Below are positions 8,928 to 64,000 of a stretch of 64,000 nucleotides of DNA, piece by piece; position 1 is the first letter of the stretch, and every line of letters starts with the position of its first letter. A model generated the notes under the pieces. The model was given only the letters and a program-made list of their open reading frames with translations, was not told where the DNA came from and did no database searches. A program made the position numbers and the translations under genes. Origin of the DNA: Antedon mediterranea (taxonomy: Eukaryota; Echinodermata; Crinoidea; Comatulida; Antedonidae); the NCBI RefSeq assembly GCF_964355755.1, contig NC_092671.1:12032501-12096500 (forward strand). Reading direction: 5' to 3'.

Positions 8928-8977
<50 letters not shown>

Positions 8978-8983
8978 CAGAAT

Positions 8984-9022
<39 letters not shown>

Positions 9023-13760: not shown

Positions 13761-13761
13761 G

Positions 13762-15036: not shown

Positions 15037-15172
15037 CATATTAACCGAGGAAGCATACAAAAATAAGATGCAATCAAAATAGGCCTACCACTTGGAAAAC
15101 AATAAATTGTAGAATAACTGTGGCTTAATTGTTGAAATAGAAAGGGTTCTTTGTAAGGTCATTAATAATATA

Positions 15173-40275: not shown

Positions 40276-40560
40276 AACAACGACAACTTACCGACCGAAT
40301 ACAAAATATCAAAACCCGTTTGTCTTTATTTCTCTATTATTGCAGACTATTCGTGTGTTACAATTGTAATTACAATGCATCATTGTAAAACGTCGCATTG
40401 TTCGAGATATACCACTACATTAACGTTTCAATATGTCCCATTGAAAAATAAGTTATTTCTCCATTCCAACATGATTTTGATCAGAAGAAAAGTTAGAGTA
40501 GGTCTAAATGATTATTAAGTTCAGTTTTTCGACCGTAAAAAATTACATCCAGCAACCATT
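40276..40560 (-). pseudogene. Remnant of a cysteine-rich peptide gene (donor and intron 1)
   Basis: Carries the exon-2 donor context (ACTTACCGACCG on the plus strand), then jumps past the exon to sequence homologous to intron 1 of the other members (TATCAAAAC...TGTCTTTAT...GGGTTACAATTG), followed by the TTACATCCAGCAACCATTTT word. The cysteine exon itself is missing. It shows the array continued leftward before the gypsy insertion. Confidence 0.6.
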
Positions 40561-40675
40561 TTACTAAATATGCGCAACAACTATTATCTGCAGGCTTGTT
40601 TGGTACTGACTGTATGGCCTAAATTGATCATTATTATAACAATTAATTATGAACTAACTGTCAGTTATTTTTTCT

Positions 40676-41172
40676 TCTTCCGCCCTACGTATTGGCTCAG
40701 GTTCTTGTTCTACGATTAACTAAAACATGAAATCAAAATCAATGAATTATCGTAAGTGTGGGACAACTTTGTCCTCTATTATTAGTGACAACAATAACTT
40801 ATCGACCGGAATACGAATACATTTAGCCTTTTTACCATAGGGATAACATTTTTCATTTTCTTGACATGAATTTGAATCAGCACATGGATTAAAAAAGATA
40901 AAATCAGCAATAATAAAGCATAATTTTGAAATATCAAAGCCCGTGTGTATTTCTCTGTTACTCATGCAGACTAATCGTGGGTTACGACAACATTATAGAT
41001 ATACGACTACATTAACGTTTCGTTATGTTACGGTACTCCTTGGATGGTCACTCCAACAGAGTTTTGAAAGAAAAGTTAGAGTAACATAGGTATCGGCCTT
41101 TCACTAACCTGCGCTAGACAACTCGACGGTTACACTAAAATACATGAATAGAATAATTGACAATCGAATCAT
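40676..41172 (-). pseudogene. Secreted cysteine-rich peptide gene 1 (broken splice sites)
   Basis: Minus strand. Exon 1 (41172-41109, phase-1 donor GTTAGTG) encodes an intact signal peptide, MIRLSIILFMYFSVTVELS then SA. Exon 2 homologue (about 40892-40803) still reads CADSNSCQENEKCYPYG with four cysteines. Its donor is ATAAGT where the others have GTAAGT, and the acceptor AG is lost (TTTTTTAATCC). Exon 3 (40728-40676) reads QEPEPIRRAEEEKITD with an intact acceptor and GTTAGT donor. Skipping exon 2 would keep the frame, because all phases are 1, giving a signal peptide plus acidic tail only. No exon 4 was found, because the next sequence is the gypsy side. Confidence 0.65.
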
Positions 41173-41540
41173 CTTGCAGAAAGAAATCTAACACTAATAA
41201 TGAGACAAAACAAAATGTAACTGTTCAAAATAATGCTCACAAAAGTAATACCAAAATGGTGTTCTTTTGAAAACAATATATTTATAATTGTTTAAAAATA
41301 ACTAAATATAATGAAGATCTCAACCGATTCTCTGTGCTGTGTCTAGATTTGCCTATTATAGGAACATTTTGTAATATCATACTGCGTTTCACATGTTTCT
41401 CCCTCCTAGTAACCTTACAAGATACAGGCACAACATGCAAAACAAATGAGATGAAGTATTATCAAATATTCCCAATAGGGCAAATATTGATAGATTTTAG
41501 GAATTATTGATTACCTGAGAGAAGCTGTACCGTTACGTAC
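41173..41540. other. 5' flank of peptide gene 1
   Basis: Homologous to 59073-59350 upstream of gene 4 (GAAGATCTCAACCGATTCTC, CAGGCACAACATG). It may contain the promoter, but no TATA box or initiator stands out. Confidence 0.45.
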
Positions 41541-41607
41541 GTAATCTCAAAACATATGTTTTATTGTCCCATTTATCAAATTAGAAACAATCCCAAGTGA
41601 GTGGAAT

Positions 41608-42804
41608 ATGAGTATCGTTGTACCAATATTTAAAAAAGGAGATCGTAAAGACCTAAATAATTATAGAGGCATCTCATTAACATCTTGTGTTTCCAAAATA
41701 TTTAACAGAATAATCTCAATGTATATATCTTGTTTTGTTGAAAAAGAAAATGTACTTTCGGAAGTCCAGGGAGGCTTTAGAGCCTATCACCGTTGTGAAG
41801 ATCACATCTTTACATTGAAAAGCATTTTATCTTGTCGTTCAATTGAAGGTAAAACTACACATCTAGCTTTCCTGGACTTCCGAAAAGCATTTGATAGTGT
41901 ATGGCGTGATGGTCTCCTAAAATGTGCCTGGGATACGGGAGTTAGAGGGAAAATTTGGAAAATAATAAGCTCTGCACTATATGACAATGTTAAAGCAAAA
42001 GCAAAAGTGGGGGAAAGCATGACTAATGAGTTTAATATCCACAAAGGAGTAAAACAAGGGTGTGTACTCTCACCAATTTTATTTTCTATATTTATTAATG
42101 AATTTGTTAAACTTCTTCGTGAAAGCAATTTCGGGGTAAGAATGAAAGGTGTCTGGATGGGAGGGCTCTTCTGGGCTGATGATGTTATATTGATTGCTAA
42201 TAATGAAAGGGAAATGACTGAAATGTTAGAAATTGCCAATATATTCGCCAAAGAATGGAAACTTGGTTTTAATCATGAAAAAAAATCAAATGTCATGGTT
42301 GTTGGAAAACGCATAAACAAAGATAAAGAGTGGAAATTAGGTGAAAAATCGATAAAAGAAGTAAATAGTTATAAATATTTAGGGGTCAATATTTCCTCAA
42401 ACATGAGTGAACATTCACATTATGAACATGTTATCCAAAAGGGCAACCGGCTTATAGCTTATATCAAAGGTATCATAGCTAACCTTGATGACTTTAACCG
42501 GGTGTACTTTGGAAAGATACTGTGGAAAACCATTGCAATTCCTTCAATAAATTATGCTTGTAGCATTTGGTATAATAAATCCAAGAAGGATAACGAAGAC
42601 CTAGAGAAAGTGCAATTGCAAATGGCCCGCTTTCTTCTCAAAGCTCCACGGTATACTCCAAAAGAGGCACTTTATGGTGACCTCCTTGGGTGGGTTCCAT
42701 TATCCAAGTTACACAAACTGTCCAGAGTTAAATTATTTAATCTTTTATATCTATGGATGACCACAGGTGGCCTAATATTGTACTTAATTCTATGCTACAA
42801 TTGA
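41608..42804 (+). pseudogene. LINE reverse transcriptase (5'-truncated)
   Basis: 398 codons: MSIVVPIFKKGDRKDLNNYR, GISLTSCVSKIFNRIIS (fingers), VQGGFRAYHRCEDHIFTL, HLAFLDFRKAFDSVWRDGLL (motif A), HKGVKQGCVLSPILFSIFIN (motif B), LFWADDVILIANNEREM (motif C with Trp in place of Tyr before ADD), SYKYLGVNIS. The thumb is intact. The last codons are in a wrong frame, and the sense continues in the 42753 frame. The start is a truncation point. Confidence 0.82.
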
Positions 42805-43439
42805 AATGTGACTTTGATCGTTTAAAATATAAATTTCTTAGTAGTTGTGTTGACATATTTGAAAAATGCACAGATATAGGCTTTTACAACAATGTTTTTG
42901 ATAATGATAGTTTAACTCTTGTTCCTTTCTCAGTCAGCAATGTCAAGCGATGTTTGTCAGAATCAAATAAATCAGAGTGGTCAAATAATATAATGCAAAA
43001 AACCTCAATAAATTTATACTCAAAATTGAAACCTTTCCCTAATTTAGAAAAATATTTACTTGATAAAACACATTTTTATGAGACAAGTCTGAAATTTAAA
43101 TTAAGATCTAACACTCTACCTTTAGATTGTAAAACTTATAAATGGTCCAATGATGTGTCCGGTCTTTGTACTTTATGTGGGAATGGTGAAATTGAAGACA
43201 TTAAACATTTTTTATTAAACTGTAAAGCATTTGATAATATTAGGATGAAAGAATTATCCAATCTACAAAATAATCTTGTACTCTGTAATGATTATGACAC
43301 ATGGAATCGTTACACAACAGCAAGTGCTGATGATAAATTACAGTATATTTTAGATGGAGATTCTACCGCGATTTGTAAAGAATCTGAGACCTTTTTTGAT
43401 TTGTTTTGTAAACACTTGTGTTTGCAACCCCTTGGATAA
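42753..43439 (+). pseudogene. LINE ORF2 C-terminal domain
   Basis: Continues the RT polypeptide in the next frame: WPNIVLNSMLQLKCDFDRLK, PNLEKYLLDKTHFYETSLKF, LRSNTLPLDCKTYKWSND and the zinc-knuckle-like CTLCGNGEIEDIKHFLLNC. It ends at TAA after CLQPLG. The 29.3-kb and 32.8-kb elements have matching C-termini. Confidence 0.78.
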
Positions 43440-43500
43440 AATAATATATTTATATAATGGAGAAAGTTAGATATTATAATATTTCTTTTTGATCATACAA

Positions 43501-44614
43501 TGATAATTTTTAAATTACTTCTTAAGAAGTCATACTACTGATTCAAAATAGTGACTTACACCCTGTGGTCAAGGCTTTCTTTGCTCTTATGCTTATTTCC
43601 TCCAACATACAGAGTACATAGGACTTTTTTTATTCATAATTGTTGAATTGTTTCCCAATACATAGTACCTATTGGTATTATATCTAAAAATACAAAGGCG
43701 GCTAACACAGATAGTTCCATATATACAGTACTCTTTTATAAATAAATGTATCTCTCCAAACTACTCCCAACTACCTAATCTAATAATAGTACTATTAGCA
43801 TACTACTATACACTTTGTAGACAAGAAATAAGTTGTATACACTAGAGGACTTATGGTAGTACAGACGATCGCTCTCTCACTGGCCCGGTCAACATAATCT
43901 ATACCTAGATTATTACAGTAATTAAAGTACATTATTACAGGGTTTTTTTTTTTTTTGCAGAAATCAAAGTTATGTGTATAGAAAGCAGTACTCGTATTAA
44001 AAACTAAGCAGGTTGCAGGTCTTGAACGCAAACTGGCAGGATATTTTTAATATTTTTTGTTGTTGAAATGATGGAATCCTAACTTCAATTTCCACGAACC
44101 CTTTTATTTAAATTTATTTGAATAGACCTCCATGTAAACTCATTAAAGGCTACATGATTGTTTTATATTTTAATATGTGATAGTAGAAAATCATTGTGTA
44201 TAATGAGGACTATGAATCTGATATTTACTTGCATTCTCATCTTTTTAAATTATTATTTATAATGCCGGTAATGAGTTTAAAATTTAATTATATTGACTAT
44301 TTTTGATAATCATCATGTCCTTATGAATTCATTTATATTTCTTTTGTGTAATATAGTTCATATATTATGTATTAAGTAAATTGGTAAGGCCCTATACTGT
44401 TACTATTTAAGGAAAGTTTATATACACTATTATTTTATGCCTACCAATATTAGTATTAATTGTTTATGTAAATATTTTGTCTAATTGCCTTGATTTTTTG
44501 TATAGGCCAATGGAATCAATGTTTTTCTCAAAGCAAATTAGCCTAATAATGCCACATTTAGACACATGATTCATTGATTTCTGATATTCTGTACTTGTGT
44601 ATGCATTACTAAAA
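43501..44614. other. Intergenic AT-rich DNA
   Basis: No gene is recognised. It may include the LINE 3' UTR. Positions 43433-43480 are complementary to 47680-47731. The minus ORF at 43795 has no support. Confidence 0.5.
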
Positions 44615-46731
44615 CTAGATGGTACGCTCGCTTTGCTCGCGTACCATCTAGGTCGTGCCCACAGATGGTTCTCGAATACACAGTAATTTCAGGGTAAAAA
44701 ATCTGGCGATTTCAAATGCACGTACCGCAGGACTATAATACATTGTCGTTTACAGAAACAAATAAGTAGACACGATAATTTATGTAGTCAACTAAAATTA
44801 CCACTCTGGGAATTACTTCCGAAAGAGAAACTTACCACAAAATTAGTCCAAATTGTTTATTCATTTAAAGAAACCCAATTATGGTTGAGGGATGGGAAAG
44901 AGGATAGGTACAAAGAAGAACAATTTTTAAATATATTCTTTATCCACGTCAGTAACGAAATATTGTTTTCATTTTTCATAGGCCTATAAATAATATACCA
45001 CCACTAACGGTGACTAAATATAGTAAAACATTTGCGATTTAATACTTTGTTAAAACTGTCACTGTCATAGTCGATTGAAATAGTAAAGTACATGTAACGA
45101 TACACCACTACGACGTTTATATTTTTTGTAATTATTAATTAATGCAAACGTTGAGAAGCAACTGTCAGTAATAAAGTTTATTTGTATATTACGTGTGTAT
45201 ATATCTAACAGTAGAGCCTACCCATAATCACAGTAATAAAGTTTATTTGTATATATTTTTTTACATCTAACAGTATTCACAGTAAGAAATGTTTGTATAT
45301 ATTTTTTTACATCTAACAGTATTCACAGTAAGAAATGTTCGATTCAAATGACGACCAAAAATGGTTAATAGGTATTTGCAGTACTGTATTGTCAAAGTAT
45401 TGCAAGTTTATTCTCCAAGGGCTCATAAATTTACCTACTTGTGTTAAACCAAACTGGCAGACTGAGAGATTGGAATGTTCCATTCATCGCAAATCAATAC
45501 ATTTGTATAAACGTATATTAAATCTATCAAAATAGTATTTTTTTAAAGAAAATCGGCCTGTCTTCAACATTATGATGCTGTACTCGGGCTGTTCAACCGG
45601 TTTTCAGCCATTAAAAACAATTATCGTAGGAGGAGATAGGAAAATGCGAAGCATCCTCGTATTATTGTCTGCGGGTATTTTTCAAGATGGACATACATTA
45701 GACAGTGACGTGTATACACGATCGGAAAACACCCCTATTTGGGGCAAATCGTTGAACCTAAATTCGTTTTAATCGTCAATAACTAATTATCGAACTCAAT
45801 TTAATTAGTAAACACGGTTACATCAGGTGGTTAAAATCAGTACCGAAAGTACGAACCAACTTTATATACCATCGAGTAAACATTCTAGAAATTACGCGCG
45901 ATTTACCGAATTTTGCCCTTACGTAAATTTATATATAGATGCAAACGTTGAGAAGCAACTGTCAGTAATAAAGTTTATTTGTATATTACGTGTTTATATA
46001 TCTAACAGTAGAGCCTACCCATAATCACAGTAATAAAGTTTATTTGTAAATATTTTTTTACATCTAACAGTATTCACAGTAAGAAATGTTTGTATATATT
46101 TTTTTACATCTAACAGTATTCACAGTAAGAAATGTTCGATTCAAATGACGACCAAAAATGGTTAATAAGTATTTGCAGTACTGTATTGTCAAAGTATTGC
46201 AAGTTTATTCTCCAAGGGCTCATAAATTTACCTACTTGTGTTAAACCAAACTGGCAGACTGAGAGATTGGAATGTTCCATTCATCGCAAATCAATACATT
46301 TGTAAAAACGTAAATTAAATTTATCAAAATAGTATTTTTTAAAGAAAATCGGCCTGTCTTCAACATTATGATGCTGTACTCGAGCAGTTCAACCGGTTTT
46401 CAGCTATTAAAAACAATTATCGTAGGAGGAGATAGGAAAATGCGAAGCGTCCTCGTATTATTGTGTGCGGGTATTTTTCAAGTTGGACATCCATTAAACA
46501 GTGTATACCACGATCGGAAAACACCCCTATTTGGGGCAAATCGTTGAACCTAAATTCGTTTTAATCGTCAATAACTAATTATCTAACTCAATTTAATTAG
46601 TAAACAGGGTTACATCAGGTGGTTAAAATCAGTACCGAAAGTATGAACCAACTTTATATACCATCGAGTAAAAATTCTAGAAGTAAGGCGCGATTTACCG
46701 AATTTTGCCCTTACGTAAATTTATATATAGA
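44615..46731 (-). mobile_element. Helitron family 1, copy B, with duplicated 5' half
   Basis: Minus strand: starts TCTATATATAAATTTACG at 46731 and ends with the 13-bp-stem hairpin and CTAG at 44615. Host A and T flank it as in copy A. The 5' half is tandemly duplicated: 45143-45939 and 45940-46731 are near-identical, each ending TATATATAGA. A single element thus has two 5' termini in direct order and one 3' terminus. No Rep/helicase ORF. Confidence 0.85.
45143..46731. repeat. ~0.8-kb direct duplication inside Helitron copy B
   Basis: Unit 1 (45143-45939) and unit 2 (45940-46731) both run from TGCAAACGTTGAGAAGCAAC to ACGTAAATTTATATATAG and differ by a few substitutions. Each unit also has an internal ~60-bp repeat with ACATCTAACAGTATTCACAG. 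Confidence 0.88.
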
Positions 46732-47680
46732 TAGTAGTTAATATATTCCATTTATAATGTATGTATAAACATATATTCATATTTTTTTTAACATTTTTAA
46801 AGTAAAAAATTATTACAATACCTATCAACCTTTCTGATATTGTTACTATTATATAATATTCTTTGAGGCAGCAATAAAAAAAAAATTAGAACAATTAATT
46901 TGAGTTATACTGTACTATGTTAGTTCAGGAGATGAAGTGTGTGTGGGCAGAAACTAGTGTGTTGGAGGTTGGTGGTGTGAGGTGTATAGTTGTCACTTTA
47001 AGACCTAAATTAGATGTTTTCTGAAGAAAAGAAGTAAGCGCGTACGCTTTCAAACAACTCCAAGAAGATTCACACAAAATAAACTACTTTCCAATAAAGT
47101 AGTATAACAGTGTATATTACAGTACATTGAATAAACTCGAGCGGAATAATAACGCACATAAAAAAACATTCATTTTCTTTTTGAAAAGTGCCCTCTCTAG
47201 TTTTCTATTAATTTATTAATAATTATTATTAATTAATGAGTAATATGAACATATTTTTAAATGCTGGAAGCTGGTTCTACTCATAACAAAGTTTCATATC
47301 TCCAAATTTCATCAACGTATTCAAAGCACTTCAATATTAAATATCACATTTAACATAAAAATTCGGGTTTTGGATAGAATTTTGCTTAAAAACATATACA
47401 AAAAAACATCGATAAAAAATACTTTTCGTATTCAAAAACATTTGATACTTGGTATAAATGTTCACTATAGGTTGCTCTATTCACAGAAAAAAATTGCATT
47501 CATGAACGTTTTTTGTTGGTTGTTTTTTCAAAATAGTTATTAGCTTGAAAAAAATGAGTTGGAATTGTATGGTCTTTCATAAGTGTACATTTTGTAAAAA
47601 CGTAAATTTAAAAAATCAGTGATATGGCTTGATAGTTATTTTTTGTTTGCAATATGGATGGAGCAACCTATTTTATATTA
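46732..47680. other. AT-rich DNA with a ~200-bp fold-back
   Basis: No coding region. ATAGGTTGCTCTATTC at 47469 and GATGGAGCAACCTA at 47657 are inverted copies about 200 bp apart, possibly a small MITE. No duplication was found at the ends. Confidence 0.45.
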
Positions 47681-47730
47681 TAATATCTAACTTTCTCCTT
47701 ATATAAATATATTATTTTATCCAAGTGTTC

Positions 47731-47905
47731 ACATGTCTTGTTAAGTATTGCACCTTTGTCCTGTCTTTATGTTTTCTGTAATGTCACTGCACTAACGGGT
47801 GACCACCGGTAAACGAGCTTCGCTCTTACGGTTATCCATCCATATAAGTTGTTCATCTCTTATGTTCAGAAATTGAAATGGTAAATAAACTGAAACTGAA
47901 ACTGT
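47731..47905 (+). mobile_element. LINE 3' end fragment with (CTGAAA)n tail
   Basis: Plus strand: short 3'-UTR-like sequence ending GGTAAATAAA followed by three CTGAAA repeats at 47889-47904. Same tail logic as the CR1-type element at 23371 but a different hexamer. It contains a small stem GAGCTTCGCTC at 47816. No coding part remains. Confidence 0.55.
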
Positions 47906-48200
47906 GCTTATGTGATACAGGTTGACGAGCCAGGAATGATGGTAGTGCCAGTATACCGTGTAGTTTAGCCTCAAGGCAATACCATGTAGCTGGAGTAGCT
48001 TGGACAAATACAGTAGAGATTTATGAGACTTGGTGTGTGATGATTCAGTATGATAAATTTGTGCTGTGAAAGACAAAATTGTAGAATTAGGAAGAAAATA
48101 TTGTAAAATAATATAACAAGGAAATTATACTATAGTATAATTAAGGGGTAACCGTATAATACATAATTAATAGTAATAAAGGCAATGGCAATTACTTATA

Positions 48201-51898: not shown

Positions 51899-52278
51899 AC
51901 CTAGTCCAATGTACCGTTTTATTTCATTTTCAAAAATTTATAATTTTATTTCAGTTATGTTTGACATCCCAACGCGATTTCATGCGGTAGTTCCATGCCA
52001 TTTGATATTGAGCTCCTTGATGTTTCTACATTATTTACGAAAGTGCTCCACCCTCCTTCTGTTTTGTTTTGCTGCTTTTGTAGGACGACATGTAATTTGG
52101 CAGCTATTCTACGTGATAGTGCTTTTATATAGGTCTGATTTGCTTTTTAAAATAAAGGACTATTAGTGCCTATTATAACAAATATTCTGATTTAGAATTT
52201 TACACCCGGGAAGTGCGAGTGATTTGTGCACAACTTAGTGTGTATTATTTATATCCCATAACGTCTTTATCCAGTTTT
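51899..52278. repeat. Segmental-duplication unit flank (copy at 55786-56130)
   Basis: From CTAGTCCAATGTAC to GTGATTTGTGCACAAC it matches 55786-56100 at high identity, including TTTGACATCCCAACGCGATT and GAAAGTGCTCCACC. It lies 3' of peptide gene 2 (minus strand) and 3' of the gene remnant at 56.1 kb, so the duplication unit includes gene plus 3' flank. Confidence 0.8.
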
Positions 52279-53391
52279 TTATTGTCCAACTCTATAAGTA
52301 TCTGCTCTGTTCGCATAAAATCTAGCTGTAAAACGAAAACAAATCAGTGTATTAGAGTCTATTTTAATGCTTAGATAAAAGCAATGAAGAACAATTTCTT
52401 CTGCCTAACATTGATTATGGCCTGTGGCTTATCGTAATCATTTCAACTACTGTCAATCGATGTAGAGGCTTACATTCAAAATAACCATCGAATATTAAGT
52501 TTACAGTTTTACCGTAAATAATTACATTCATCAACCGTTTTACTAAATATTACGCGACAACTAATTGTCTGACACTGACTGTATTGCCTAAATTGATCAT
52601 TATTATAATAATTAATTACGAACTAACGGTCAATTCTCGGTTCTTCTTCCACCTCATAATATTGCACAGGTTCTGGTTCTGCGATTAACAAAAAGATTAA
52701 ATCAACGTCAATGAATTTAGAACTAGAATATTCCATTATCAACATATCGTAAATGTGGGAAAACTTTGTCCCCTGTTAATGGTGACAACGACAACTTACC
52801 GACCGGAAAATTAATACATGTAATCTTTTCATCATAGAAAAAACACATTCCGTTTTCTTTACATGGATTGGGATGACATGGATCGTCTACGAAGAAAAAA
52901 AGATAAATTCAGCATTATTAAAGCATAATATTGAAATATCAAAACTGTGTGTCTTTATGTCCCTGTTACTGTAGACTAATCGTGGGTTACAATTGTAAAT
53001 AAAATGCATCATAAAACATCGCATTATTCGAGATAGGCCTAATACCACTGTAGTAAAGTTTTAATACTGTATGTTATTCCATGGCTGGTCACTCCAACAT
53101 GGTTTTAAAAGAAAAGTTAGAGTAAATGTGAAATACAATTTCATCAATCCAAATGCAATTGGCAAAATATGTGTACTTAGTATAATGAATGGCTACAGAG
53201 CCACTAATAGTGATACGTCGTTGACTGTGTATAACATCCTGAGAACGACATGAAATTAGTTGACAGATTTAATTTACACCAATATTTATTGGACTAGAAG
53301 TAGGTATCGGTAACTCTCACTAACCTGCGCTAGACAACTCGACGGTTACATACACAAACATGAATATAAGAATAATTGACAATCGAAACAT
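52279..53391 (-). CDS. Secreted cysteine-rich peptide gene 2 (appears intact, four exons)
   Basis: Minus strand: exon 1 53391-53325, exon 2 52886-52800, exon 3 52678-52628, exon 4 52325-52279; 252 coding bases, 83 aa including the signal peptide. All introns are phase 1 with GT-AG ends (donors GTTAGT, GTAAGT, GTTAGT; acceptors CTTCGTAG, AATCGCAG, TTTTACAG). Exon 1: hydrophobic signal MFRLSIILIFMFVYVTVEL ending SSA. Exon 2: DPCHPNPCKENGMCF...TC, four cysteines spaced C-x4-C-x5-C-x8-C like the first half of an EGF domain. Exon 3 is Glu/Pro-rich (EPVQYYEVEEEPRID). Exon 4 is a short tail. Exon 3 can also end at a TAG inside its donor if unspliced. I do not recognise the family. It is probably exported; its function is unknown. 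Confidence 0.7.
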
Positions 53392-54205
53392 CTTGCAGAA
53401 AGAAGTCTATATTAAGAGGAATACGTGAAGAAAAACAAATACTGCAAATGTTAAGAATGATGACAATATAGATCACAAATACAACAATATTGAAAACATG
53501 GAATAATGTAAAAATGTAAACTGTTAATTAGATCTAAATAGAATATTTACTCACCTTAGTCGTTAATAGGTAATTTGTATCGTTACGCAAGCTCTCCGTA
53601 GACTAAAAGGTGTGGACATGTAAACTGGTATTTTATCATCTCATCACGCATAGGTTTTAATATATTAATATTAACGGTTATAATAGCAATATTAGCAATA
53701 CAAATATACATACAGCTGTTTTACAATTAGATTAATAAAACGTCAAATAAATTACATCCCGTTCTTTTTTTTCATTTATTTTTTGTTTAATCTTCTTTAT
53801 AGAGGGTGACTCTAAACAGTATATGCTGACAATCAATTGCTTATCGATGATGTTAGCGCTTTCCACTTTAATTCGATTGTAGGTAATTTTAAAAAACAGT
53901 TCAAACAATTAAGTTGACTCAGGTTTCAAGTCGTATCATGTAATAATCGTTTATGATGATGATGGTAGAGCTAATAGAAATTTAAGAAATAAAAACCACA
54001 TATAGTTTTGATTTTGTTATTTTATTAGATTTATTATATATTATTTATATGTCATGTAGTTAAAATCAGTGAGTTCTGCTTGAAATCCCAATTTCCTACG
54101 GTAATAGTCCCTACTATCCGGGAAATTTGAGTGATGTGCATAACTTAGTCTATGTAGGCTATGTATGACATATTTCAAAACTTCTTATTCACACCGTCTG
54201 TTTTA
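53392..54205. other. 5' flank of peptide gene 2, 3' flank of gene 3
   Basis: Homologous to 56550-56880 over GTATCGTTACGCAA, ACATGTAAACTGG and TAATATATTAATA. Presumably contains the gene 2 promoter and 5' UTR; no motif stands out. 53800-53950 resembles 56930-57000 (AGTTGACTCAGGTTT). Confidence 0.5.
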
Positions 54206-55336
54206 CTATCCGTTAGCTCTGTTAACGTCGTGTATGTTGTGATTAAATAAATCTGTAATAAAAACAAAACCAGTGTAATACTGTGCGAGTGCATTATCAT
54301 CAACTCAATGACAATTTTCAATTTTCCTTATTAAAAATTACATTACTCACTAAATGTTATGTAATTACACATATCATTTAGGTTTATAGAATCTTTAAAT
54401 TTCTGTTAATGTTTGTAAATTTGGAATTGAAACATATTGTTTGTATTAAAATGAAATTAAATATGAAAAAGGTAGCCTATAAACAGCTCATTAACCCCCC
54501 AAAAAGCTGAAAAGGTATATCACTCCTCCCTGGGTATACGAACAACGACTTACCAATATACGTACTGGTAATCGGTTCACATACGGCATTTCCATTTAAC
54601 ATGTAACATACTTCCGACGTCTCACATGTATTGGAATGGAGAGGACATGGCACTGTAGTAATACAAAAATATCAAGGTATCGTTTCAAACTTTGTCTTCT
54701 GTCAGCAATGGTGAATATTAATGGGGTATCACATTAATCAGAACGACGACTTGGGACAAGAAATTCATACCAAACTTTAGACGATTAATCTAAGATAGCC
54801 TAATCATTGTAAATAAATTCTTACTTATAGCCGTACATTCAACTTGTCTTTGAACTAACACATGTCATCATTCCAACATGGGTCGTAACAAAGATAAGAT
54901 ATTAAATGTGAAATACACTAGTTTACATCAATCCAAATACAAATTAACTAAATATTTGTATATGGTAAGATTTGACAAATTTAATTTTCATGGAAACCTA
55001 AAACGACGTTATATCAAACCACTTTTTATTTCTGTTTTCGACAGACTATTATTAGGCCTAGCCTATATGCTCTCTCCGTTTACAAACAATCTCTGGATCC
55101 GCCTCTGACGCACTGGTGCACCTTCAGTCAGACCATGGAGGAAAAAATAATCTGTAAATTGTAATCTGTAACTTATCTTTAAATGTTTGCAAATTGTCCC
55201 TAATTGCCAGAATATAAGAATTTGACAGCTCTTTAATACTTGTAAATCATTTGTAAAGAAATGCTTACGTGCACCCAGAAAATTCGACGTTTACATACAA
55301 AAACATGAATATTAGAATAGTTGACAATCAAAACAT
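54206..55336 (-). pseudogene. Secreted cysteine-rich peptide gene 3 (stop in signal exon)
   Basis: Minus strand. Exon 1 homologue 55336-55269 has TGA as codon 3 where gene 2 has CGA, and one extra base near its GTAAGC donor, giving phase 2. Exon 2 (54652-54554, 99 bp) has good CTACAG and GTAAGT sites and reads PCPLHSNTCETSEVCYML then VCEPI, again four cysteines. Exon 4 (54252-54206) is exactly 47 bp as in genes 2 and 4, ends in TAG and reads LFNHNIHDVNRANG. No exon 3 was found. The cysteine exon keeps its frame though the start is disabled: recent loss, an error, or an unseen first exon. Confidence 0.6.
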
Positions 55337-55785
55337 CGCAGAGAGAAATCTAAGAAATGTGAATATAAGACATTATTTTTAAAGTACACACATGAAATTG
55401 TCTGTTACTGTATAAAACAGTTTATCTCCAACCGTGAACAATAAGTTACAGGCAATATGTTTCATGACTCAATATAATCTTTGACAATTACCCTCTCCCT
55501 AATTGTGTGAAATCCTTGATCAAAGTAAAAAAAAGTGAACGCGCAAAAAGCCCTTAGAATTTCAACGAAAATGTACATAGGCCTACTATTCTCCAGATTT
55601 GCAATAAAGTCATAGATCCATATTCATTCACGGACCAAATATTTGGAACGCGCTCTATAAAACCAATAAATTAAAATCCCAATACTCTTTTGAAAAAAGA
55701 AACTAAAGAAATGACATTGAGTACATGTATGTATAGTGCCTCCGGGGGACAAACAGTCTCATGTCCTTTTATACCAAACCTGTAG
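55337..55785. other. 5' flank of peptide gene 3
   Basis: No coding feature. It may hold regulatory sequence. AT-rich and not obviously shared with the other members. Confidence 0.4.
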
Positions 55786-56343
55786 TCCAATGTACAATTT
55801 TATGTCATTTTAGAAATTTAGAATTTTATTTCAGTTATGTTTGACATCCCAACGCGATTTCCTGCGGTAGTTCCATGCCATTTGATATTGAGCTCCTCGA
55901 TGTTTCTACATTATTTACGAAAGTGCTCCACCATCCTCCTGTTTTGTTTTGCCGCTTTTGTAAGCTATTCCACGTGATAGTGCTTTTATATAGGTCTGAT
56001 TTGTTTTTTAAATAAAAGACTATTAGTGCCTATTATAACAAATATTCTGATTTAAAAGGAATTGTACATCCGGGAAGGGCGAGTGATTTGTGCACAACTT
56101 ATGTATGTTGTGTGTATTATTTATATTCTATAATTCCATTCCATTGATTATGGCCTGTAGCTTATCATAATCATTTAAACCACTGTCAGTCGATGTAAAG
56201 GCTTACATTCAAAATATCCATCGAATATTAAGTTTACAGTTTTTACCGTAAATAATTACATTCACCAATGGTTTTACTAAATATTGCGTGACAACTAATT
56301 GTCTGGCACTGACTTTATAGCCTAAATTGATATAATATATAAT

Positions 56344-56384
<41 letters not shown>

Positions 56385-56560
56385 AATAATAATAACAATA
56401 ATAACACTCATAATAATAATATAATAATCTATAATAATCTCCGTTCTTCTTCCACCTCATAAAACATGAATAGAATAATTGACAATCGAAACATCTTGTA
56501 GAAAGAAGTCTATATTAAGAGAAGTAAGTGAATAAAAACAAATATGATGATAATATGGAT
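55786..56560 (-). pseudogene. Deleted copy of the peptide-gene unit
   Basis: Matches the gene 2 unit (51899-53500) at both ends but lacks exons 1 to 3. The 3' flank is kept (55786-56340), then an AATAAT microsatellite (56340-56430), then an exon 3 fragment (CCGTTCTTCTTCCACCTCAT on plus) fused directly to the upstream part of exon 1 (ATGAATAGAATAATTGACAA). No cysteine exon. Non-functional. Confidence 0.65.
56340..56430. repeat. ATA/AATAAC microsatellite
   Basis: (AAT)n and (AATAAC)n run of about 90 bp inside the deleted gene copy. Confidence 0.9.
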
Positions 56561-57192
56561 CACAAATACAACAATATTGAAAACATTAAATAATGTAAAC
56601 TGTTAATTAGATCTGAGTAGAATGTTTACTCACCTTAGTTATACAGGTAATTTGTATCGTTACGCAATCTCTCAGTAGACTAAAATGTGTGGACATGTAA
56701 ACTGGTGTTTTATTATCTCATCACGCATAATATATTAATACTAATTCTTATATTAGAAGGATTAGCAGCAATACATACATGCATCTGCTTTACAATTAGA
56801 ATAATAAAACGCTTATCAAATTAATTACATCCCAGTTTTTCTCGACTTTTTAAAAATGTATTTTTTATTTTGGCATAAATTGATCATTATCATAATAATT
56901 AATTACGAACTGTAGCACACAATTTAAACTATTTTAACCCGAGTCAACTTAAAAGTTGGCTTAGGTTTTCAAGTTGTTTGTAATCTTGAACTTGTTATTG
57001 TATTAGACCAGGTCAATATGTCAGAAATTAGAATCAGTGAGTTCTGCTTAAAATCCCAACCCGATTTGCTACGGTACGGTAATAGTTCCTATAGGCCTAT
57101 CCGGGAAATGCACAACATAGTCTATGTAGGCCTACTAAATATCTTAAACTTATGAAATATTTCATAAATTCTTATTCACACCGTCTGTTTTA

Positions 57193-59072
57193 TTATCTTT
57201 TAGCTCTGTTAACGTCGTGTAAGTTGCGATTCAATGAAGCTGTAATAAAAACAAAATCAGTGTAATACTTGATATCAGTGCATTATCATCAAATCAATTT
57301 TACTTTATAAAACTTACGTTACTCACATTTATTTTTTGATTGTAAAAGCGCTTTATAAATCGAACATTTTAGGGTGTTTGATTCAATGTAATTTGTCATG
57401 GGACAAACAAGTCGACTTGATACTGTATCGAATTGTAACTGTCTCATAGGTCTGATACGACTAATAACATCGAATGCTTCTAAAGAAGTAGCTCTGCACC
57501 TTTATAAGTCACTTGTCCTACCTTGTTTGTATTATTGTTCCCCAGTCTGGTGAGTGTATCTTAAGAAACACATTCATCAGTTTTGGTACAGCGGAGAGCT
57601 ACTTGCATGATACTTAGGAAAAGATACTTGGAACAATCGTATTTCAACAGAAGAATGGAGTAAGGTCTATTGTCTGTCGAAAATAGACGTGCTTTCATTA
57701 ATATGTCCTTTATTGCCAAATTACTTATTTCTCATAGATCTGATTTTATGAGCAATTTTATTGAATCTTTTGTTATTAACAAGATGCATCAAGATGTCAC
57801 TTACGTTTCATCATGGTATCGCTAGGAATGATGCGTACAAATATTCCGGAGTTATTTGTTTTCCAAAGGCCTTTTCTGTACTCTATGTGGGGATTCGTAA
57901 TTATGTCATTGAAGAGCCTTTCCATAAGTTTAAAGCCAGTTTAAAACAATTTTATACTGATGTTTAATTTTGTAAATATAATGATGAATGTACAATAATC
58001 TATTTTTATAATACAAGTATCTATTTTTATAAATCAATCTTTAATGTACAATAATCCTTCTTTTTTTTTTATTATATAAGCATCTATTTTTGCAATTGAT
58101 TATGACCTGTGGCTTATCATAGTCATTTCAACCACTTTCAATCCATATTTTACAAGTAAAATATCAATCGAACGAACTTGTGTTTTACACTGTAAAAATC
58201 TGTACAGTAAAGTTTTTCGACCGTAAAAAAATTACATCCAGCAACAATTTTACTAATTATCTATCTGCAGGCTTGTTTGGTACTGACTGTAATGGCCAAA
58301 ATTGATCATTATTATAATAATTAATTATGAACTAACTGTCAATTCTCGGTTCTTTAGCCTCAGGTTTTAGCTCAGGTTCTTGTGCTGTGGTTAACAAAAA
58401 GATAGAATCAACATCAATGAATCTTAAACTAGAATATTCAATTATCAACGTATCGTAATTGTGGGACTACTTTGACGACTTACCAATCGGATTACGAATA
58501 CATTCAACACTTTTACCATAGGGACAACATGTTTTGTTTTCTTTACATGAATTTGAATCATCACATTTACCGGCTACGGATAAAAAAGGATATATGAATC
58601 AGCATTAATAATGCATAATATTGAAATATCAAAACTGTTTGTCTTTATATTCCTGTTATTGTAGGCCTACACTAATCGTGGGTTACAATTGTAAATAAAA
58701 TGCATCATAAAACATCGCATTATTCGAGATATACCACTATATTAACGTTTCAATACTGTATGTTATTTCATGGATGGTCACTCCAACATGGTTTTGAAAG
58801 AAAAGTTAGAGTAAATGTGAAATACAATTTCATCAATCCAAATGGAATTGACAAAATATGGGTATTTAGTATAATGAATGGCTACAAAGCCACTAATTGT
58901 GATACGTCGTCGACTGTGTATAACATCCTGAGAATGACATGAAATTAGTTGACAGATTTAATTTACACCAATATTCATTGGACTAGAAGTAGGTATCGGT
59001 AACTCTCACTAACTTGCGCTCGACGGTTACATACAAAAACATGAATATAAGAATAATTGACAATCGAATCAT
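57193..59072 (-). pseudogene. Secreted cysteine-rich peptide gene 4 (8-bp deletion in signal exon)
   Basis: Minus strand: exon 1 59072-59014, exon 2 58573-58484, exon 3 58384-58337, exon 4 57239-57193 (47 bp). Exon 1 reads MIRLSIILIFMFLYVTVE but lacks 8 bases present in genes 1 and 2 (TTGTCTAG of the SSA region), so the junction phase is 2, not 1, and a stop follows in exon 2. Exon 2 reads KCDDSNSCKENKTCCPYG and EC (five cysteines, two adjacent). Exon 3 reads QEPELKPEAKEPRID. Splice sites are all intact. Intron 3 holds a LINE fragment (57375-57966). A single repair of length would restore the frame, so check for a sequencing error. Confidence 0.6.
57375..57966 (+). pseudogene. Non-LTR RT C-terminal fragment in intron 3 of gene 4
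   Basis: Plus strand, in broken frames: LHLYKSLVLPCLYYCSPVW, then LKKHIHQ, FINMSFIAKLLISHRSDF and finally VIEEPFHKFKASLKQFYTDV with a stop. This is the post-thumb region of CR1/jockey-type RT. It lies antisense to the host gene. Confidence 0.6.
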
Positions 59073-60840
59073 CTTGCAGAAATAAATCTAGCACTAATAA
59101 TAAGTAGTCACTAAGTGAAGAAAAACAAAATGTAAAAGTTCAAAATAATGTACACAAAAATTAGTACAAAAATTGTGTTCTTTTGAAAACATTATATTTA
59201 TAATATATATTATATAATATAATATATAATATTTATAATAATAAATATAATGAAGATCTCAACCGATTCTCTGTACTGTGTCTAGATTTGTCCATTATAG
59301 GAATATTTGCGTTTTACATGTTTCTCTTTGCTATCATAACCTTACATGAAACAGGCACCACATGTAATACAAATGAGATAGGCCTACTGTATTACCTAAC
59401 AAATTAAAACATATAACAAAAGACATTGATTGGATACCGGCGGCGGGCAAATAAAAAAAAAACAATTCTTACTAGTTAAACAAGTTGATTGTCAATTATT
59501 TTTAATTTATGCAGATATAGGCCTAAGTTGCCGTTTTGTTTGTTGAAATTTGAATTGTTTTTTTTGTTTTCAATCATCATTTATCTTAAGTCGGTTTGTC
59601 CCACTTCTTTATTTCTTCCAAATAATGAACATGGTACAAGACAATAAATACATAGCAGACAATGTACCGTTAAACCATGGAGCTATAGATTCATGGTTAA
59701 ACAACCCAATGTCTGGACATCTAAGATTAATCTTTTATAATAATATTGTAGTCATGGTATTCATATTTTCAACCCAAAAGTGTGTTTCTAACCTATGTTG
59801 TAAATTACTTCCGAAACCCATTTTAGAAGATATTCGTTTTTCTTTGGTATGTCACTCATGGTATGACATTTATAATTACCGTATTTATTCGGATTGACGT
59901 TTGCAGAACGAGCAGTAATAAATGTATGCTGCAGCAGACACTGGTTGTGGGCTACCATGGTCTATTAATAGGCCTATAATCATTTTATGTATAAATCTAA
60001 ATAATTATTGCATGTGTTGAAATTTTATTGATACCGTAAGCAAAAATTACGATACAAACAAAAATTGATTTAATGAGATAATAATCATATAGGCCTAAGC
60101 ATTAACAAAACTGAACATTGTTTTTCAAATTCATTTATAGATAATTTAAAAAAACAGTTTACCATATGCCTATTTTGTCAATAAAACAGATGGTCATATT
60201 AACATATAACACAGTATTCAATATTTATAATTATAGGCTTTACATGATAATTGTTATGCACCTTTGACAAACATGTTTATTTTTAATGACTGTTTTTGAG
60301 CGCCGTAACAAATAAAAATATGATTATGAAATAAAGTTTGAACTGAATAACTCTGAATAATTAATTGTTTTAATTGGAGTGTTGCATGACAACACTGCAA
60401 CGACGCATCACTCGTATAGTGACACATTCATTAACAAACACCTGTCATACATCTTACCTTTTATCAGGTATGTAAAACTTTATATTTACTCTTTCATATT
60501 CAAATCATTTTTGTTAATGAAGACAACATCATAGGCCATATCTGCTACCATAGCCTCAATATATATGTGACAATTTATTATAGAATATGCTTACGATACT
60601 AGACAAATTAAGGCATTAGGCCAATATGGAGATACAGTCCAGAGAATCGAGTAACGCGATGGTGACGGAGAAACTGTATTGTGATATGATGATGACGACG
60701 ACAGTCAAAGGCGACCATGATTTGGTGGTGGTGATAACAATAAATTCTAAAAAAATAATTCCCTAATTTCTTTATTTTATTGTTTTTTCGCACACGTCAT
60801 TTGATGAGATGTTGCATAAAACGTTGCTTATTATTCGTTA
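59073..60840. other. Intergenic DNA between peptide genes 4 and 5
   Basis: 59090-59350 is homologous to the 5' flank of gene 1. 59350-60840 is AT-rich with GGCCTA words. The frame at 59550-59897 (115 codons) has no recognisable domain. This stretch lies between genes 4 (minus) and 5 (plus), so the two are transcribed divergently from it. Confidence 0.45.
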
Positions 60841-60880
60841 CCGTATTTTGTATCTCTAACAGGTTTCTAACATTTAAAAG

Positions 60881-61302
60881 ATGGTTCGAATTTTGATTGC
60901 TTTGTACGTGTTTCTGTTTTTAAACAACGTAATGTTAGAGGCTGCTGGTGGTTAGTAATTATGATTATTATTATTTTTTTACATTTTGTAGGCCTAAGCC
61001 AAATTTTTTATTTTTTTTTAGAGGGTAACCCTCTCAGAAATTACATTTATAACATATAAAATTACACATCCTCATATGTAAGTGTGTGTATTCCAAAACA
61101 ACGTTCAATAAATTTGGCAAGCTATGCCGTTTCATTTTTTTTGTAGTTTTAATTGTTTAATTTTCTTTATATAGATTCAAAACCATGCGACCCAAATCCA
61201 TGTGAATTCACTTGTAATGAGCTTAAAAGTGGAGACCAGGGTTACACATGCACCAAACCTACAAAACTTAAATCTAAGTCACGTACGATTTGTTTGAATT
61301 GA
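60881..61302 (+). CDS. Secreted cysteine-rich peptide gene 5 (plus strand, two exons)
   Basis: Exon 1 60881-60950 encodes a signal peptide, MVRILIALYVFLFLNNVML then EAAG, with donor GTTAGT in phase 1. Exon 2 61175-61302 begins after acceptor TTTCTTTATATAG and reads PCDPNPCEFTCNELKSG...YTC, ending with a basic tail TKLKSKSRTICLN and TGA. 198 coding bases, 65 aa. Cysteine spacing C-x4-C-x3-C-x11-C plus one near the C-terminus. The PC.PNPC core, GTTAGT donor, phase 1 and signal-exon length link it to the minus-strand family, but the acidic and tail exons are replaced by a basic tail. An AATAAA word follows at about 61365. Function unknown. Confidence 0.62.
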
Positions 61303-62450
61303 TTAAACTTTAATTAGGCCTACATCACATCTTGAGAACGAGTCGCACTGTAAATAATTTTAAATTAAATAAATAATCACGACGCATTTGGTCATCGTCG
61401 CTTGTGATTGGTCAACTCACTTGAGTTGCGTCTATATATGTCACTGCGTTGCGTCCAAGAGAGCTTTTGTGAAATTAACAACCAAATTCAATTCATGGTT
61501 GGAAAGGGCAGTTATATTAACATTTCAATTATAACCACAAGTATTCTCCAGATGCATACAGTAACCAGTATCATGATTACTACCATACTTTTTACTTGGC
61601 AAAATATAGTATAGTACTTTCTTTGTATGTTAGCACGGTACCGCCTACAATTTTCAAATTATTATTCTGAAAATGTCGGTGTAATGTATACTTACAGAAC
61701 ATGCCTATTGAAATTCAAGAAAATTGGTTTGTTATAAAATTTATATTCTTTTAACATGGTCCGAAATATCAACATGCGTCCTCTGTTTCAATATTATATT
61801 TATATTTTTTTAAGTACTTCACTCAGTTTCTGAGTGCTTTCATTTATTATTTCAATGATTCTTTTAGATCTTAATGCGATGTTCATCAGTAGGGGTGATG
61901 CTAAACACGATTAGAAGTAATTCTGATCCAGCTGTACTATGCAAGCCATAGTACAAATACAGAAACGAAGCACAATAGGAGAATGGTCGATAACGCCTTT
62001 GCAAATGTATTCTTATTGATATTATATTAAAGTATATGAAAGAAAATAAATGCAACAAAACTATTCTTAGGCCTATTGTCAATGTGTATTTTTTAATTTT
62101 GCCGAGGAGTCCGTGCTAAAAAAACAACAGTAACTAATTATAATTAAAGTAAATCAAAAGGCATTTCATTTACATAATTTTACATTGTTTGCCACAACTT
62201 TGTCAGTAATGGTGACTGTTGATAGAAATCAATTATCACACTCATTTTGGACTAGAACTCATGGTCCTACAAAAAATGCATAGCATTGTCAGACTATATC
62301 GTAAATGAATATCTTAGATTACCTTACCTTGATCAAAGTATAACCTAAGATAACGTGTTATGTTTGACAACTCTGTGCAATACCTGTGAACTTAACATTT
62401 AAAAGTATAGGCCTATGTTAGGGATATACGAATTCTCACTACGGTAACTT
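61303..62450. other. Intergenic DNA
   Basis: No gene is supported. 62190-62260 resembles intron sequence next to exon 2 of the family (CACAACTTTGTCAGTAATGG), so a decayed member may lie here, with the exon-1 remnant at 62450. No cysteine exon could be read. Confidence 0.45.
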
Positions 62451-62519
62451 TTGCTAGAAAACTCGACGTCGATAGTTACATACAACAACATGAATAAAAT
62501 AATTGGCAATCAAAGGATT
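62450..62519 (-). pseudogene. Signal-peptide exon remnant of the peptide family
   Basis: Minus strand. Aligns to exon 1 of genes 1-4 (TTGATTGCCAATTATT, TGTATGTAACTAT, CGAGTTTTCTAGC), but the start ATG is ATC, the third codon is TGA, and the donor is GTTACC. A dead copy. Confidence 0.6.
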
Positions 62520-62813
62520 GTGCAGAAAGTCTATGAGAAGTGTTTGAAGAAATGATTTTTAGTTATGAATATTGACGGCAATAAAGAACACAAGTAAAAT
62601 TAACTGTCTTCTTTATTTATCGTTGAACATGTGAAATAAGTTACGGTATCTAGGCCTAAAATAATAGTAAATTGTTAAACAGATCTGAAATAAAAATGTA
62701 CTTACTTTGTATCGTTATTCAATTCAATTTCAAAATGGCCGATATATAAATTGTGTTTTATCAGGGAAACTGAGTAAATTGTATTATCTCATTATTCATC
62801 TTGTAATACAAAC

Positions 62814-62814
<1 letters not shown>

Positions 62815-62894
<80 letters not shown>
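62815..62894. repeat. (TA)n microsatellite
   Basis: About 80 bp of uninterrupted TA dinucleotide. It creates the artificial Tyr-Ile repeat frame at 62707. Confidence 0.97.
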
Positions 62895-62896
<2 letters not shown>

Positions 62897-63740
62897 TTGT
62901 TTATTAATTCCCTATTGAAAGAAAATTAATTCATGGCACAAAACAGTTGAAGAAACTGTCAATTGTTAATGTTTTAAAACAGTCTCGACATTTTATCGAC
63001 TCTTTTGGTAGTTTCTACGTACAATTGAAATAAGTGATGATTTTGATTGACAATATTGTCAATTTATGTCTATTTTTATTAGACCTATAGTGGTTTCTTT
63101 TTACAGTTGATAAGTAGCAACTTATTTAGTCAGTGACGACGAAAAGTCAACCAGTCAAATGTTCCTTTCCAAGTCTCAAGTTATTGTCTTTATGTCATTA
63201 AGTACGTTTTAATTTTTTGTCTGAATCATCTGATCTAAACTATCGGAAACGAACAAGGAATAACAAAAGTAAAACTGTTACAGTGCTAATATTTTATTCC
63301 TGTTATCGTAAGTATTTTATAATTTTCATTTATACTCTTAGGCCTATGTTAATTACGATTTTAATGTCGAAAAGTGAGAACAGTTAGATGGTCATGGCGC
63401 AAAGATTTAGTTAACCATTTCTAGCAGCATCAGCCCAATTGGAATAGAGTGAACCTGAAGAAAGATAAAAATGAGTACTTTGAAAGAAGCTCTGGGTTTG
63501 TTTATTGTGCAATAGAAAATTGTAATAAAATTCTCCCGAATATGGTGAAGCAGAATGCAGAGTGTCGTGAAATCAGGTTTTTTTTAAAGTCGTGGGATAC
63601 AGGAAATTCACCAACATTTTTGTCAATTTGGGGAATTGTTCGTAAGAAATCTAAAGAACAATCGTTTTATTTACGAAGTATTTTTATTATAAATATTTAT
63701 ACGGTTAACGATTGTTGAGATCAATAAAATCGCATCAAAA
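62895..63740. other. Intergenic DNA, 3' side of peptide gene 6
   Basis: No clear gene. The plus frame at 63449-63718 has three cysteines but no family resemblance. Exons 3 and 4 of gene 6 might lie here but were not recognised. Confidence 0.4.
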
Positions 63741-63749
63741 ATTCCTTAC

Positions 63750-63842
63750 CTATGTCTTGGCACTGCCGGGTTCCATCCTCCATAGTGTAACACTCTTGGA
63801 CCTCTGAACACTCTGGGATACACCGTGGTGGGTGAAGTTCAA
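63750..63842 (-). CDS. Secreted cysteine-rich peptide gene 6, cysteine exon (partial gene)
   Basis: Minus strand exon of 93 bp (31 codons), phase 1 at both sides: donor GTAAGG after ATAG, acceptor AAAAAG with a weak pyrimidine tract. It reads CIPECSEVQECYTMEDGTRQ then C: four cysteines spaced C-x3-C-x5-C-x9-C, in line with exon 2 of genes 1-4. The signal exon would be to the right, beyond the window. Confidence 0.5.
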   Translation of the reverse strand: MNFTHHGVSQSVQRSKSVTLWRMEPGSAKT

Positions 63843-64000
63843 CTTTTTTTTTAAATGCATGAGACATATTTGATAATTGAAATAAAAAATAATTCACTAA
63901 ACTAAAACAAAACGGTTTAACATGCGTGACGCATAAATTAAATCTACGGTCGGCTGGATCGAAAATCGATAAAATAGGGTCTGATGACAATAGTAAATAC

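What the first reader, a model, noticed from the sequence alone, without database searches (positions are those of the whole stretch)
40276..63990. Tandem family of short secreted cysteine-rich peptide genes, apparently undescribed
At least six members and three remnants share a hydrophobic signal exon, a 29-33-codon exon with four cysteines (C-x3..6-C-x5-C-x8..9-C, often with PNPC or SNSC), an optional Glu/Pro-rich exon and a 47-bp tail exon. All junctions are phase 1. The cysteine exon looks like the first half (C1 to C4) of an EGF domain without its second half. Signal exons are similar between members while cysteine exons differ, which suggests diversification of the mature peptide. I do not recognise the family. 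Secreted, fast-changing, tandem families often act in defence, venom or reproduction; which applies is unknown.
Basis: partly seen in the sequence, partly recalled or inferred. Interest (0 to 1): 0.88.

Follow-up and report, generated by a model that had tools for sequence, protein, structure and literature searches.

The report
Clustered genes for small secreted cysteine peptides
An animal chromosome carries a cluster of repeatedly copied genes, many of them now broken, predicted to make small secreted peptides whose core looks like half of a common protein building block (EGF); they look like a fast-changing set of body-fluid peptides, but expression and function are untested.

Summary
Two complete coding models lie in the window (g52 on -, g61 on +); a third (g63) runs over its right edge. 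g54 and g58 keep cysteine and tail exons but have broken signal exons; g40 is a pseudogene; g56 and g62 are scraps. Layout: signal / 4-Cys exon / optional acidic exon / ~14-residue tail, all phase 1. The family continues beyond both edges (g70, g108, multi-module genes) and in a second cluster 3.7 Mb away that is partly a 97-99% copy.

g52's module matches the first 23 of 32 Pfam EGF positions (E 0.012, below cut-off); its AlphaFold hairpin (pLDDT 82) resembles EGF modules best, but not significantly. The C5-C6 half is absent. Nearest published analogue found: starfish KASH2, a two-disulfide hairpin peptide of coelomic fluid; spacing and precursor order differ. Copies appear to exchange 5' cassettes; positive selection on the cysteine exon is suggested, not shown.

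Best guess: a lineage-specific secreted peptide repertoire in body fluid or mucus (defence, injury or recognition). Real genes ~0.9; role ~0.4. No transcript or other species' sequence was available.

The parts
53555..53630 (-). g52: predicted 5'UTR exon ending at donor AAG|GTGAGTAAA; its start is not determined
   Evidence: Read directly; the tract lies in the block shared with gM15/gM23/g56. Prediction only.
53325..53391 (-). g52: signal-peptide exon (MFRLSIILIFMFVYVTVELSSA), phase-1 donor GTTAGT
52800..52886 (-). g52: cysteine exon, C-x4-C-x5-C-x8-C (DDPCHPNPCKENGMCFFYDEKITCINFPV)
   Evidence: Pfam EGF 1-23/32, E 0.012, below cut-off; model pLDDT 82.5
52628..52678 (-). g52: acidic Glu/Pro exon (EPEPVQYYEVEEEPRID), phase-1 donor GTTAGT that also reads as an in-frame TAG if unspliced
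52279..52325 (-). g52: 47-bp C-terminal tail exon (RFYANRADTYRVGQ stop)
60881..60950 (+). g61: signal-peptide exon
61175..61282 (+). g61: cysteine exon, C-x4-C-x3-C-x11-C
61868..61914 (+). g61: 47-bp tail exon (LNAMFISRGDAKHD stop)
63750..63896 (-). g63: cysteine exon C-x3-C-x5-C-x9-C; a 93-bp version with a poor A-rich acceptor is also possible. Signal exon (64925-64988) and a 39-bp Cys exon (64433-64471) lie beyond the window
63411..63454 (-). g63: tail exon, 44 bp (SLYSNWADAARNG stop)
54554..54652 (-). g54: cysteine exon C-x6-C-x5-C-x8-C, both splice sites intact
   Evidence: model pLDDT 73
54206..54252 (-). g54: tail exon (LFNHNIHDVNRANG stop)
55270..55336 (-). g54: broken signal exon (stop at codon 3)
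59014..59072 (-). g58: signal exon with an 8-base deletion; donor falls in phase 2
58484..58573 (-). g58: cysteine exon (5 Cys), splice sites intact
58337..58384 (-). g58: acidic exon (QEPELKPEAKEPRID)
57193..57239 (-). tail exon (SLNRNLHDVNRAKR stop), assigned to g58 by position
40523..41172 (-). g40: pseudogene (signal exon frame open, acceptor and donor of the cysteine exon lost, no tail exon found)
56435..56494 (-). g56: scrap, signal exon joined to acidic exon by an internal deletion
62445..62529 (-). g62: signal-exon scrap, start codon lost

Best explanation
A real, still turning-over cluster of small secreted-peptide genes. Each complete gene makes a 73-97 residue precursor: signal peptide, one or more 4-cysteine modules, often an acidic linker, and a short recognisable C-terminal tail. 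The module is most likely an EGF exon that lost its C5-C6 half; since EGF disulfides pair 1-3, 2-4 and 5-6 (established), what is left can form a closed two-disulfide beta-hairpin (inferred). New genes arise by tandem and segmental duplication and, it appears, by exchange of the promoter/5'UTR/signal-exon cassette between bodies; many copies die. The most likely role is a lineage-specific set of extracellular peptides acting in body fluid or mucus in defence, injury response or recognition, the hairpin presenting variable loops and the tail doing a shared job. Shown: gene structure in DNA, copies, breakage, where homology between copies ends. Inferred: expression, disulfides, secretion, EGF origin, role. 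Estimates: real genes 0.9; EGF-derived module 0.65; body-fluid defence/injury/recognition role 0.4.
For: Strict exon scan 4 vs 0 vs 1 hit in 60 shuffles; 8 of 8 strict signal-exon hits in 144 kb at family loci; recurring tail exon; five complete in-frame models. g52 gene DNA finds 25 matches (a lower bound by the tool's own note), all on C2 in two clusters, 12.008-12.092 and 15.72-15.94 Mb, with a 7.4-kb block 99.2% identical between them. Homology g52 vs gM15/gM23 runs from several hundred bases upstream to +81 from the ATG and stops 15 bases into intron 1. EGF: partial Pfam match of g52, Foldseek list for g52 dominated by EGF-bearing proteins, same hairpin predicted for g54, weak match of g52 to a six-Cys EGF exon on C6. 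Body-fluid role by analogy only: starfish KASH2.
Against: No transcript, proteome, population or cross-species data. Pfam EGF match is below cut-off for g52 and absent in the other 5 proteins and in all 9 (8 family pieces and the C5 N-terminus). No Foldseek match has E<=0.001; g54's list is weak and mixed. Three of six cysteine-exon genes in the window are broken. g61 has no DNA relative in the genome apart from a dispersed repeat; its place in the family rests on layout, signal and tail. g52-g58 nonsynonymous vs synonymous is not significant (Fisher p 0.24). Mature pI 4.1-4.9 in 4 of 5 models does not look like a classical cationic antimicrobial peptide. Homologue searches of g52 and g108 found nothing, though that set is built from predicted contig proteins and probably holds few spliced genes.
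Confidence: 0.42

Rival explanations
1. Reproductive recognition peptides: the family coats or is released by gametes, and its divergence follows sperm-egg or allorecognition conflict.
For: Turnover and possible acceleration of the cysteine exon. A related signal exon precedes a CAP gene on C5; in ascidians a CRISP/CAP protein on sperm and polymorphic EGF repeats on the egg coat act in gamete recognition (PMC9265791, passages only).
Against: No expression data; the CAP link is one shared signal exon only; acceleration not shown.
Confidence: 0.2
2. Signalling peptides: small secreted ligands or decoys of a receptor, with the C-terminal tail as the active part.
For: A tail with a shared ...F-x-S-x-G/A/Q-D... 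core recurs in ten places (the motif was chosen after seeing them).
Against: Cysteine modules vary too much for one receptor; the C5-C6 half of EGF, part of EGFR-ligand folds (recalled), is absent; no consistent amidation or dibasic site seen by eye (no scan run).
Confidence: 0.15
3. Venom or antimicrobial effector peptides, like conotoxin or AMP families (conserved signal, variable Cys-rich mature part; recalled).
For: Similar signal exons with different Cys exons; gene clusters.
Against: Acidic mature peptides in 4 of 5 models; no venom tissue known for this unnamed animal.
Confidence: 0.12
4. A mostly dead cluster: a formerly active family decaying, with no present function.
For: g40, g54, g56, g58, g62, g67 and gM23 are broken or scrap.
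Against: Five complete models with plausible splice sites, recent duplication, signal exon conserved where introns no longer align.
Confidence: 0.1
5. Exons of one or a few large EGF-repeat proteins.
For: Phase 1-1 exons; gM15/gM20 may join into one multi-module gene.
Against: Separate signal exons and stop-bearing tails per complete gene, genes on both strands, no C5-C6 half.
Confidence: 0.03

Closest known systems
EGF-like domain (Pfam PF00008)
   Same: C1-C4 spacing (recalled pattern) in 11 of 13 tabulated modules, PNPC-type start in g52 and g61, phase 1-1 exon; g52's 5' boundary is the same as in an ordinary EGF exon of this genome; predicted hairpin between C3 and C4
   Different: C5 and C6 absent; Pfam score below cut-off (16.3 vs 21.5 bits) for g52 and no match for the others scanned; stands in a short precursor
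KARTESH (KASH1/2) and CHUPA peptides of the starfish Asterias rubens (PMC11891777)
   Same: Short precursor with signal peptide, acidic region and four-cysteine peptide; KASH2 has Cys1-3/2-4 and a beta-hairpin; variable loops; KASH2 structures 8v2u and 8v2m are ranks 4 and 23 in g54's weak Foldseek list
   Different: Order there is signal-acidic-cysteine with convertase cleavage sites; here signal-cysteine-acidic-tail, without dibasic sites obvious by eye; modules do not fit the DDH spacing as I recall it (0 of 13); no sequence homology shown
Conotoxin-type gene superfamilies (recalled)
   Same: Similar signal exon, divergent Cys-rich mature exon, clusters with many broken copies
   Different: Mature Cys part followed by an acidic linker and a tail; no evidence of venom use; no homology shown
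CAP / CRISP family (PF00188)
   Same: A C5 CAP gene has a signal exon 82% identical over 92 bp to that of g108
   Different: No CAP domain in the members scanned

Membership tests
EGF-like domain | Six cysteines, C1-C6 | tested here: not met
   Each tabulated module has 4 Cys (g58: 5); acidic and tail exons have none
EGF-like domain | C1-C4 spacing of the N-terminal half (recalled pattern) | tested here: met
   11 of 13 modules; g108 and gM20-B fail on C1-C2 spacing of 2. Degenerate modules (gM15-A, gM23) and g63's 39-bp exon were left out of the table
EGF-like domain | Profile score above curated cut-off | tested here: not met
   g52 16.3 vs 21.5 bits, positions 1-23/32; none for the other 5 or the 9
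EGF-like domain | Fold: two-stranded hairpin between C3 and C4 | tested here: inconclusive
   Predicted for g52 (pLDDT 82.5) and g54 (73); Foldseek EGF-dominated for g52 but best E 0.37, weak and mixed for g54
Disulfide-directed beta-hairpin (DDH) peptides incl. KASH2 | Cys spacing C-x5..19-C-x2-[G/P]-C-x6..19-C (pattern recalled) | tested here: not met
   0 of 13 modules
Disulfide-directed beta-hairpin (DDH) peptides incl. KASH2 | Connectivity Cys1-3, Cys2-4 | not testable with these tools
   Needs folded peptide
KARTESH/CHUPA precursors | Signal, acidic region, convertase site, then 4-Cys peptide | tested here: not met
   Order is signal, Cys, acidic, tail in g52 and g70
Secreted peptide gene | N-terminal signal peptide with cleavage-like end | tested here: inconclusive
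   Hydrophobic core and small residues near the end (S-S-A in g52) by own scan; no signal-peptide predictor was available
Secreted peptide gene | Spliced transcript | not testable with these tools
   No RNA data

The most novel reading that the evidence does not exclude
EGF exons were cut to their N-terminal half, giving a free-standing two-disulfide hairpin module that was then used, alone or in strings of up to three (perhaps six), as the variable part of a recombining secreted repertoire: promoter/signal cassettes are exchanged between bodies (and one signal exon is shared with a CAP gene), while a short C-terminal tail stays recognisable. That would be an independent route from EGF to a DDH/KASH-like mini-fold used for body-fluid recognition.
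Probability: 0.2. Interest if true: 0.75.

Novelty: new variant of a known kind. Interest (0 to 1): 0.52.

Why it matters
Fast-evolving small secreted peptides are easily missed by genome annotation because their exons are about 30 codons long and share few residues. Here the DNA shows a whole cluster with its dead copies, recent duplicates and cassette junctions, so birth, exchange and death of such genes can be followed in one place. If the half-EGF module folds on its own, it would link one of the commonest extracellular modules to two-disulfide hairpin peptides such as starfish KASH2. All of this is testable with RNA-seq, proteomics and one synthetic peptide.

Tried and rejected
Large EGF-repeat gene: rejected, because complete models have their own signal exon and stop-bearing tail. 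Cationic antimicrobial peptide: made unlikely by acidic mature parts (cleavage points chosen by me). g61's first reading with a stop inside the cysteine exon (used) was replaced by a donor at 61282 plus a tail exon. Diversifying selection: exon 2 of g52/g58 is 67.8% identical against 94.0% (intron 1) and 85.9% (intron 2), and dN/dS by counting is 2.07-2.95 for three non-independent pairs, but synonymous sites are only about 17-18, nonsynonymous vs synonymous gives p 0.24, exon 2 is not faster than introns in g52-g40 or g58-g40 (p 0.28 and 0.52), and the 3' flank carries g52-only changes at a rate (16 of 114) near that of exon 2 (15 of 80); gene conversion of the 5' tract explains much of the contrast, so it is left as suggestive. 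Pfam SLR1-BP, WAP, PMR5N, Zn_ribbon_RRN7 and Conotoxin hits are all under cut-off and were ignored. PDB sequence searches: g52's exon gave 11 weak rows (best 4d90, an EGF-repeat protein, E 0.0077, among fluorescent proteins and others), g54's none. DNA search with g61 found only itself plus a dispersed repeat in its second intron. Literature: searches (listings capped, e.g. 20 of 352 and 15 of 217) showed no paper that I recognised as describing this family; only PMC11891777 (parts 1, 3, 4 of 5 and passages) and PMC9265791 (passages) were opened, the rest are listings. Whole-genome searches with the g108 and g61 proteins and with the g70 gene did not complete.

Full report
What was checked. 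The window is C2:12032501-12096500 of a 354,431,138-bp genome in 18 contigs.

Exons. A strict scan for phase-1, splice-flanked exons with four suitably spaced cysteines finds four in 40-64 kb (g52, g54, g58, g63), none in 1-40 kb, and one hit in all over 60 shuffles. g40 and g61 fail the strict filter and were found by the loose scan. The complete g52 model has exons 53325-53391, 52800-52886, 52628-52678 and 52279-52325 and encodes 83 residues. g61 on the other strand has three coding exons and 74 residues; g63 has four, two of them beyond the window, and 97 residues with eight cysteines; g70 and g108, to the right of the window, have three each. The cysteine-exon acceptors of g63 and g70 are each a choice between two candidates. 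Acceptor-like sequence lies directly before the ATG in g52, g70 and g108, so a 5'UTR intron is likely there.

Broken copies. g58 has an 8-base deletion in the signal exon, g54 a stop at codon 3, and g40 has lost both splice sites of the cysteine exon. g56 lost the cysteine exon by an internal deletion, g62 the start codon. Outside the window g67's cysteine exon is out of phase with its signal exon, g72 has a signal exon and a tail but no cysteine exon was found, and gM23's modules carry stops and a lost cysteine.

Extent. With flanks from -30 kb to +50 kb (20 kb N), the strict signal-exon scan gives eight hits, all at loci I assign to the family; a looser one over the right flank gives 5 of 10 rows. 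On the left are gM15 and gM23, with three modules each of which some are degenerate, and a block of three modules without its own signal exon (gM20), which may be the continuation of gM15 across an insertion or a separate broken gene. DNA of the g52 gene matches 25 places in the genome, all on C2, at 12.008-12.092 and 15.72-15.94 Mb (counts being lower bounds). The second cluster includes an inverted copy of the left flank whose colinear blocks are 97-99% identical, one of 7,396 bp at 99.2%, so duplication is recent (assembly error not excluded).

Cassettes. Around the ATG, g52 shares several hundred upstream bases and the signal exon with gM15 and gM23 at 86-89%, and the similarity ends 15 bases into intron 1, after which the bodies differ (one search gives 94% and 90% for the inner 324-331 bases). 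I read this as exchange of a 5' cassette; replacement of the body would look the same. For pairs whose flanks no longer align, the block shared around the ATG is the signal exon with its splice sites, which points to past constraint on it. g108's signal exon is 82% identical over 92 bp to one on C5 whose next exons belong to a CAP gene (PF00188 E 8.7e-6 on one of four exon pieces tested). g61 stands apart: no DNA relative but a repeat; BLASTP with g52 aligns 34 residues, mostly signal (44%, pairwise E 2e-7); its tail resembles those of g70 and g108.

The module. Pfam EGF matches g52 over positions 1-23 of 32 at E 0.012, under the cut-off; the other five proteins and all nine (eight family pieces, one C5 N-terminus) have no EGF match. 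AlphaFold on the g52 exon with four rows gives pLDDT 82.5, pTM 0.37 and a hairpin at 13-18/21-26; 49 of the 50 chains shown from a Foldseek list of 102 are of proteins with EGF modules (some judged by recall), best E 0.37, TM up to 0.71 on the query. g54 gives the same hairpin at pLDDT 73, but its Foldseek list of 61 (50 shown) is weak and mixed; two entries with EGF modules head it, and the starfish peptide KASH2 is at ranks 4 and 23. In one search, matches to g52 outside C2 are weak (best E 0.003); that best one, the only one I read, is an ordinary six-cysteine EGF exon on C6 whose start (AG|AC-NNN-CCA-TGT) matches g52's. I take EGF descent as likely, not shown.

Selection. See Tried and rejected: exon 2 differs more than its introns between g52 and g58, but not in the two other pairs, and tract conversion and small numbers prevent a firm claim.

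Comparison. KASH2 and relatives in Asterias rubens are coelomic-fluid peptides raised after injury, with signal, acidic region and four cysteines; KASH2 pairs 1-3/2-4 around a hairpin, and did not stimulate human fibroblasts (PMC11891777). Ours would share that topology if the EGF pairing holds, but precursor order and spacing differ and no homology was shown, so I do not file it there. It is also not an EGF domain by the six-cysteine definition.

Verdict. A real gene cluster (0.9), apparently undescribed within what I could search, of a known general kind with an unusual half-EGF module, a recurring tail exon and apparent cassette exchange. Function is an inference by analogy (0.4).

Noticed in passing
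window 1-9727: Interrupted rDNA unit: 18S pieces at 1-431, 2399-2630, 4257-4653, 5.8S at 4981-5136, 28S split over 5270-9727, with an RT ORF at 6413-7375, two ORFs that look near-identical by eye at 1003-1869 and 3126-3899, and (GTACTAGCC)n arrays at 368-784 and 2590-2904. Inserts appear inside the 18S as well as the 28S, unlike classical R2 (recalled).
   Followed up: no
C5:29133334-29135900 (L049): CAP-family gene whose signal exon is related to that of the g70/g108 genes on C2; a second copy of the signal exon, with a stop, lies at C5:29138.8 kb.
   Followed up: partly
C2:15719001-15735000 (L042, L043) vs window -7.4 to -20.4 kb: Inverted segmental duplication 3.7 Mb away, colinear blocks 97-99% identical, with the signal-exon cassette present three times at 15.73, 15.87 and 15.94 Mb.
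   Followed up: partly
window 61590-61850: Dispersed repeat in g61's second intron; 46 match rows (self included) on 11 of 18 contigs, with 40 of 789 candidates scored.
   Followed up: no
window 13755-15039: 42 copies of a 30-bp tandem repeat, with ORFs in more than one frame of the - strand.
   Followed up: no
window 23773-26487 (-), 37426-38466 (-), 41608-42804 (+): Reverse-transcriptase ORFs: a 904-aa LINE-type ORF, a pol fragment with RT and RNase H, and an RT ORF between g40 and g52.
   Followed up: no
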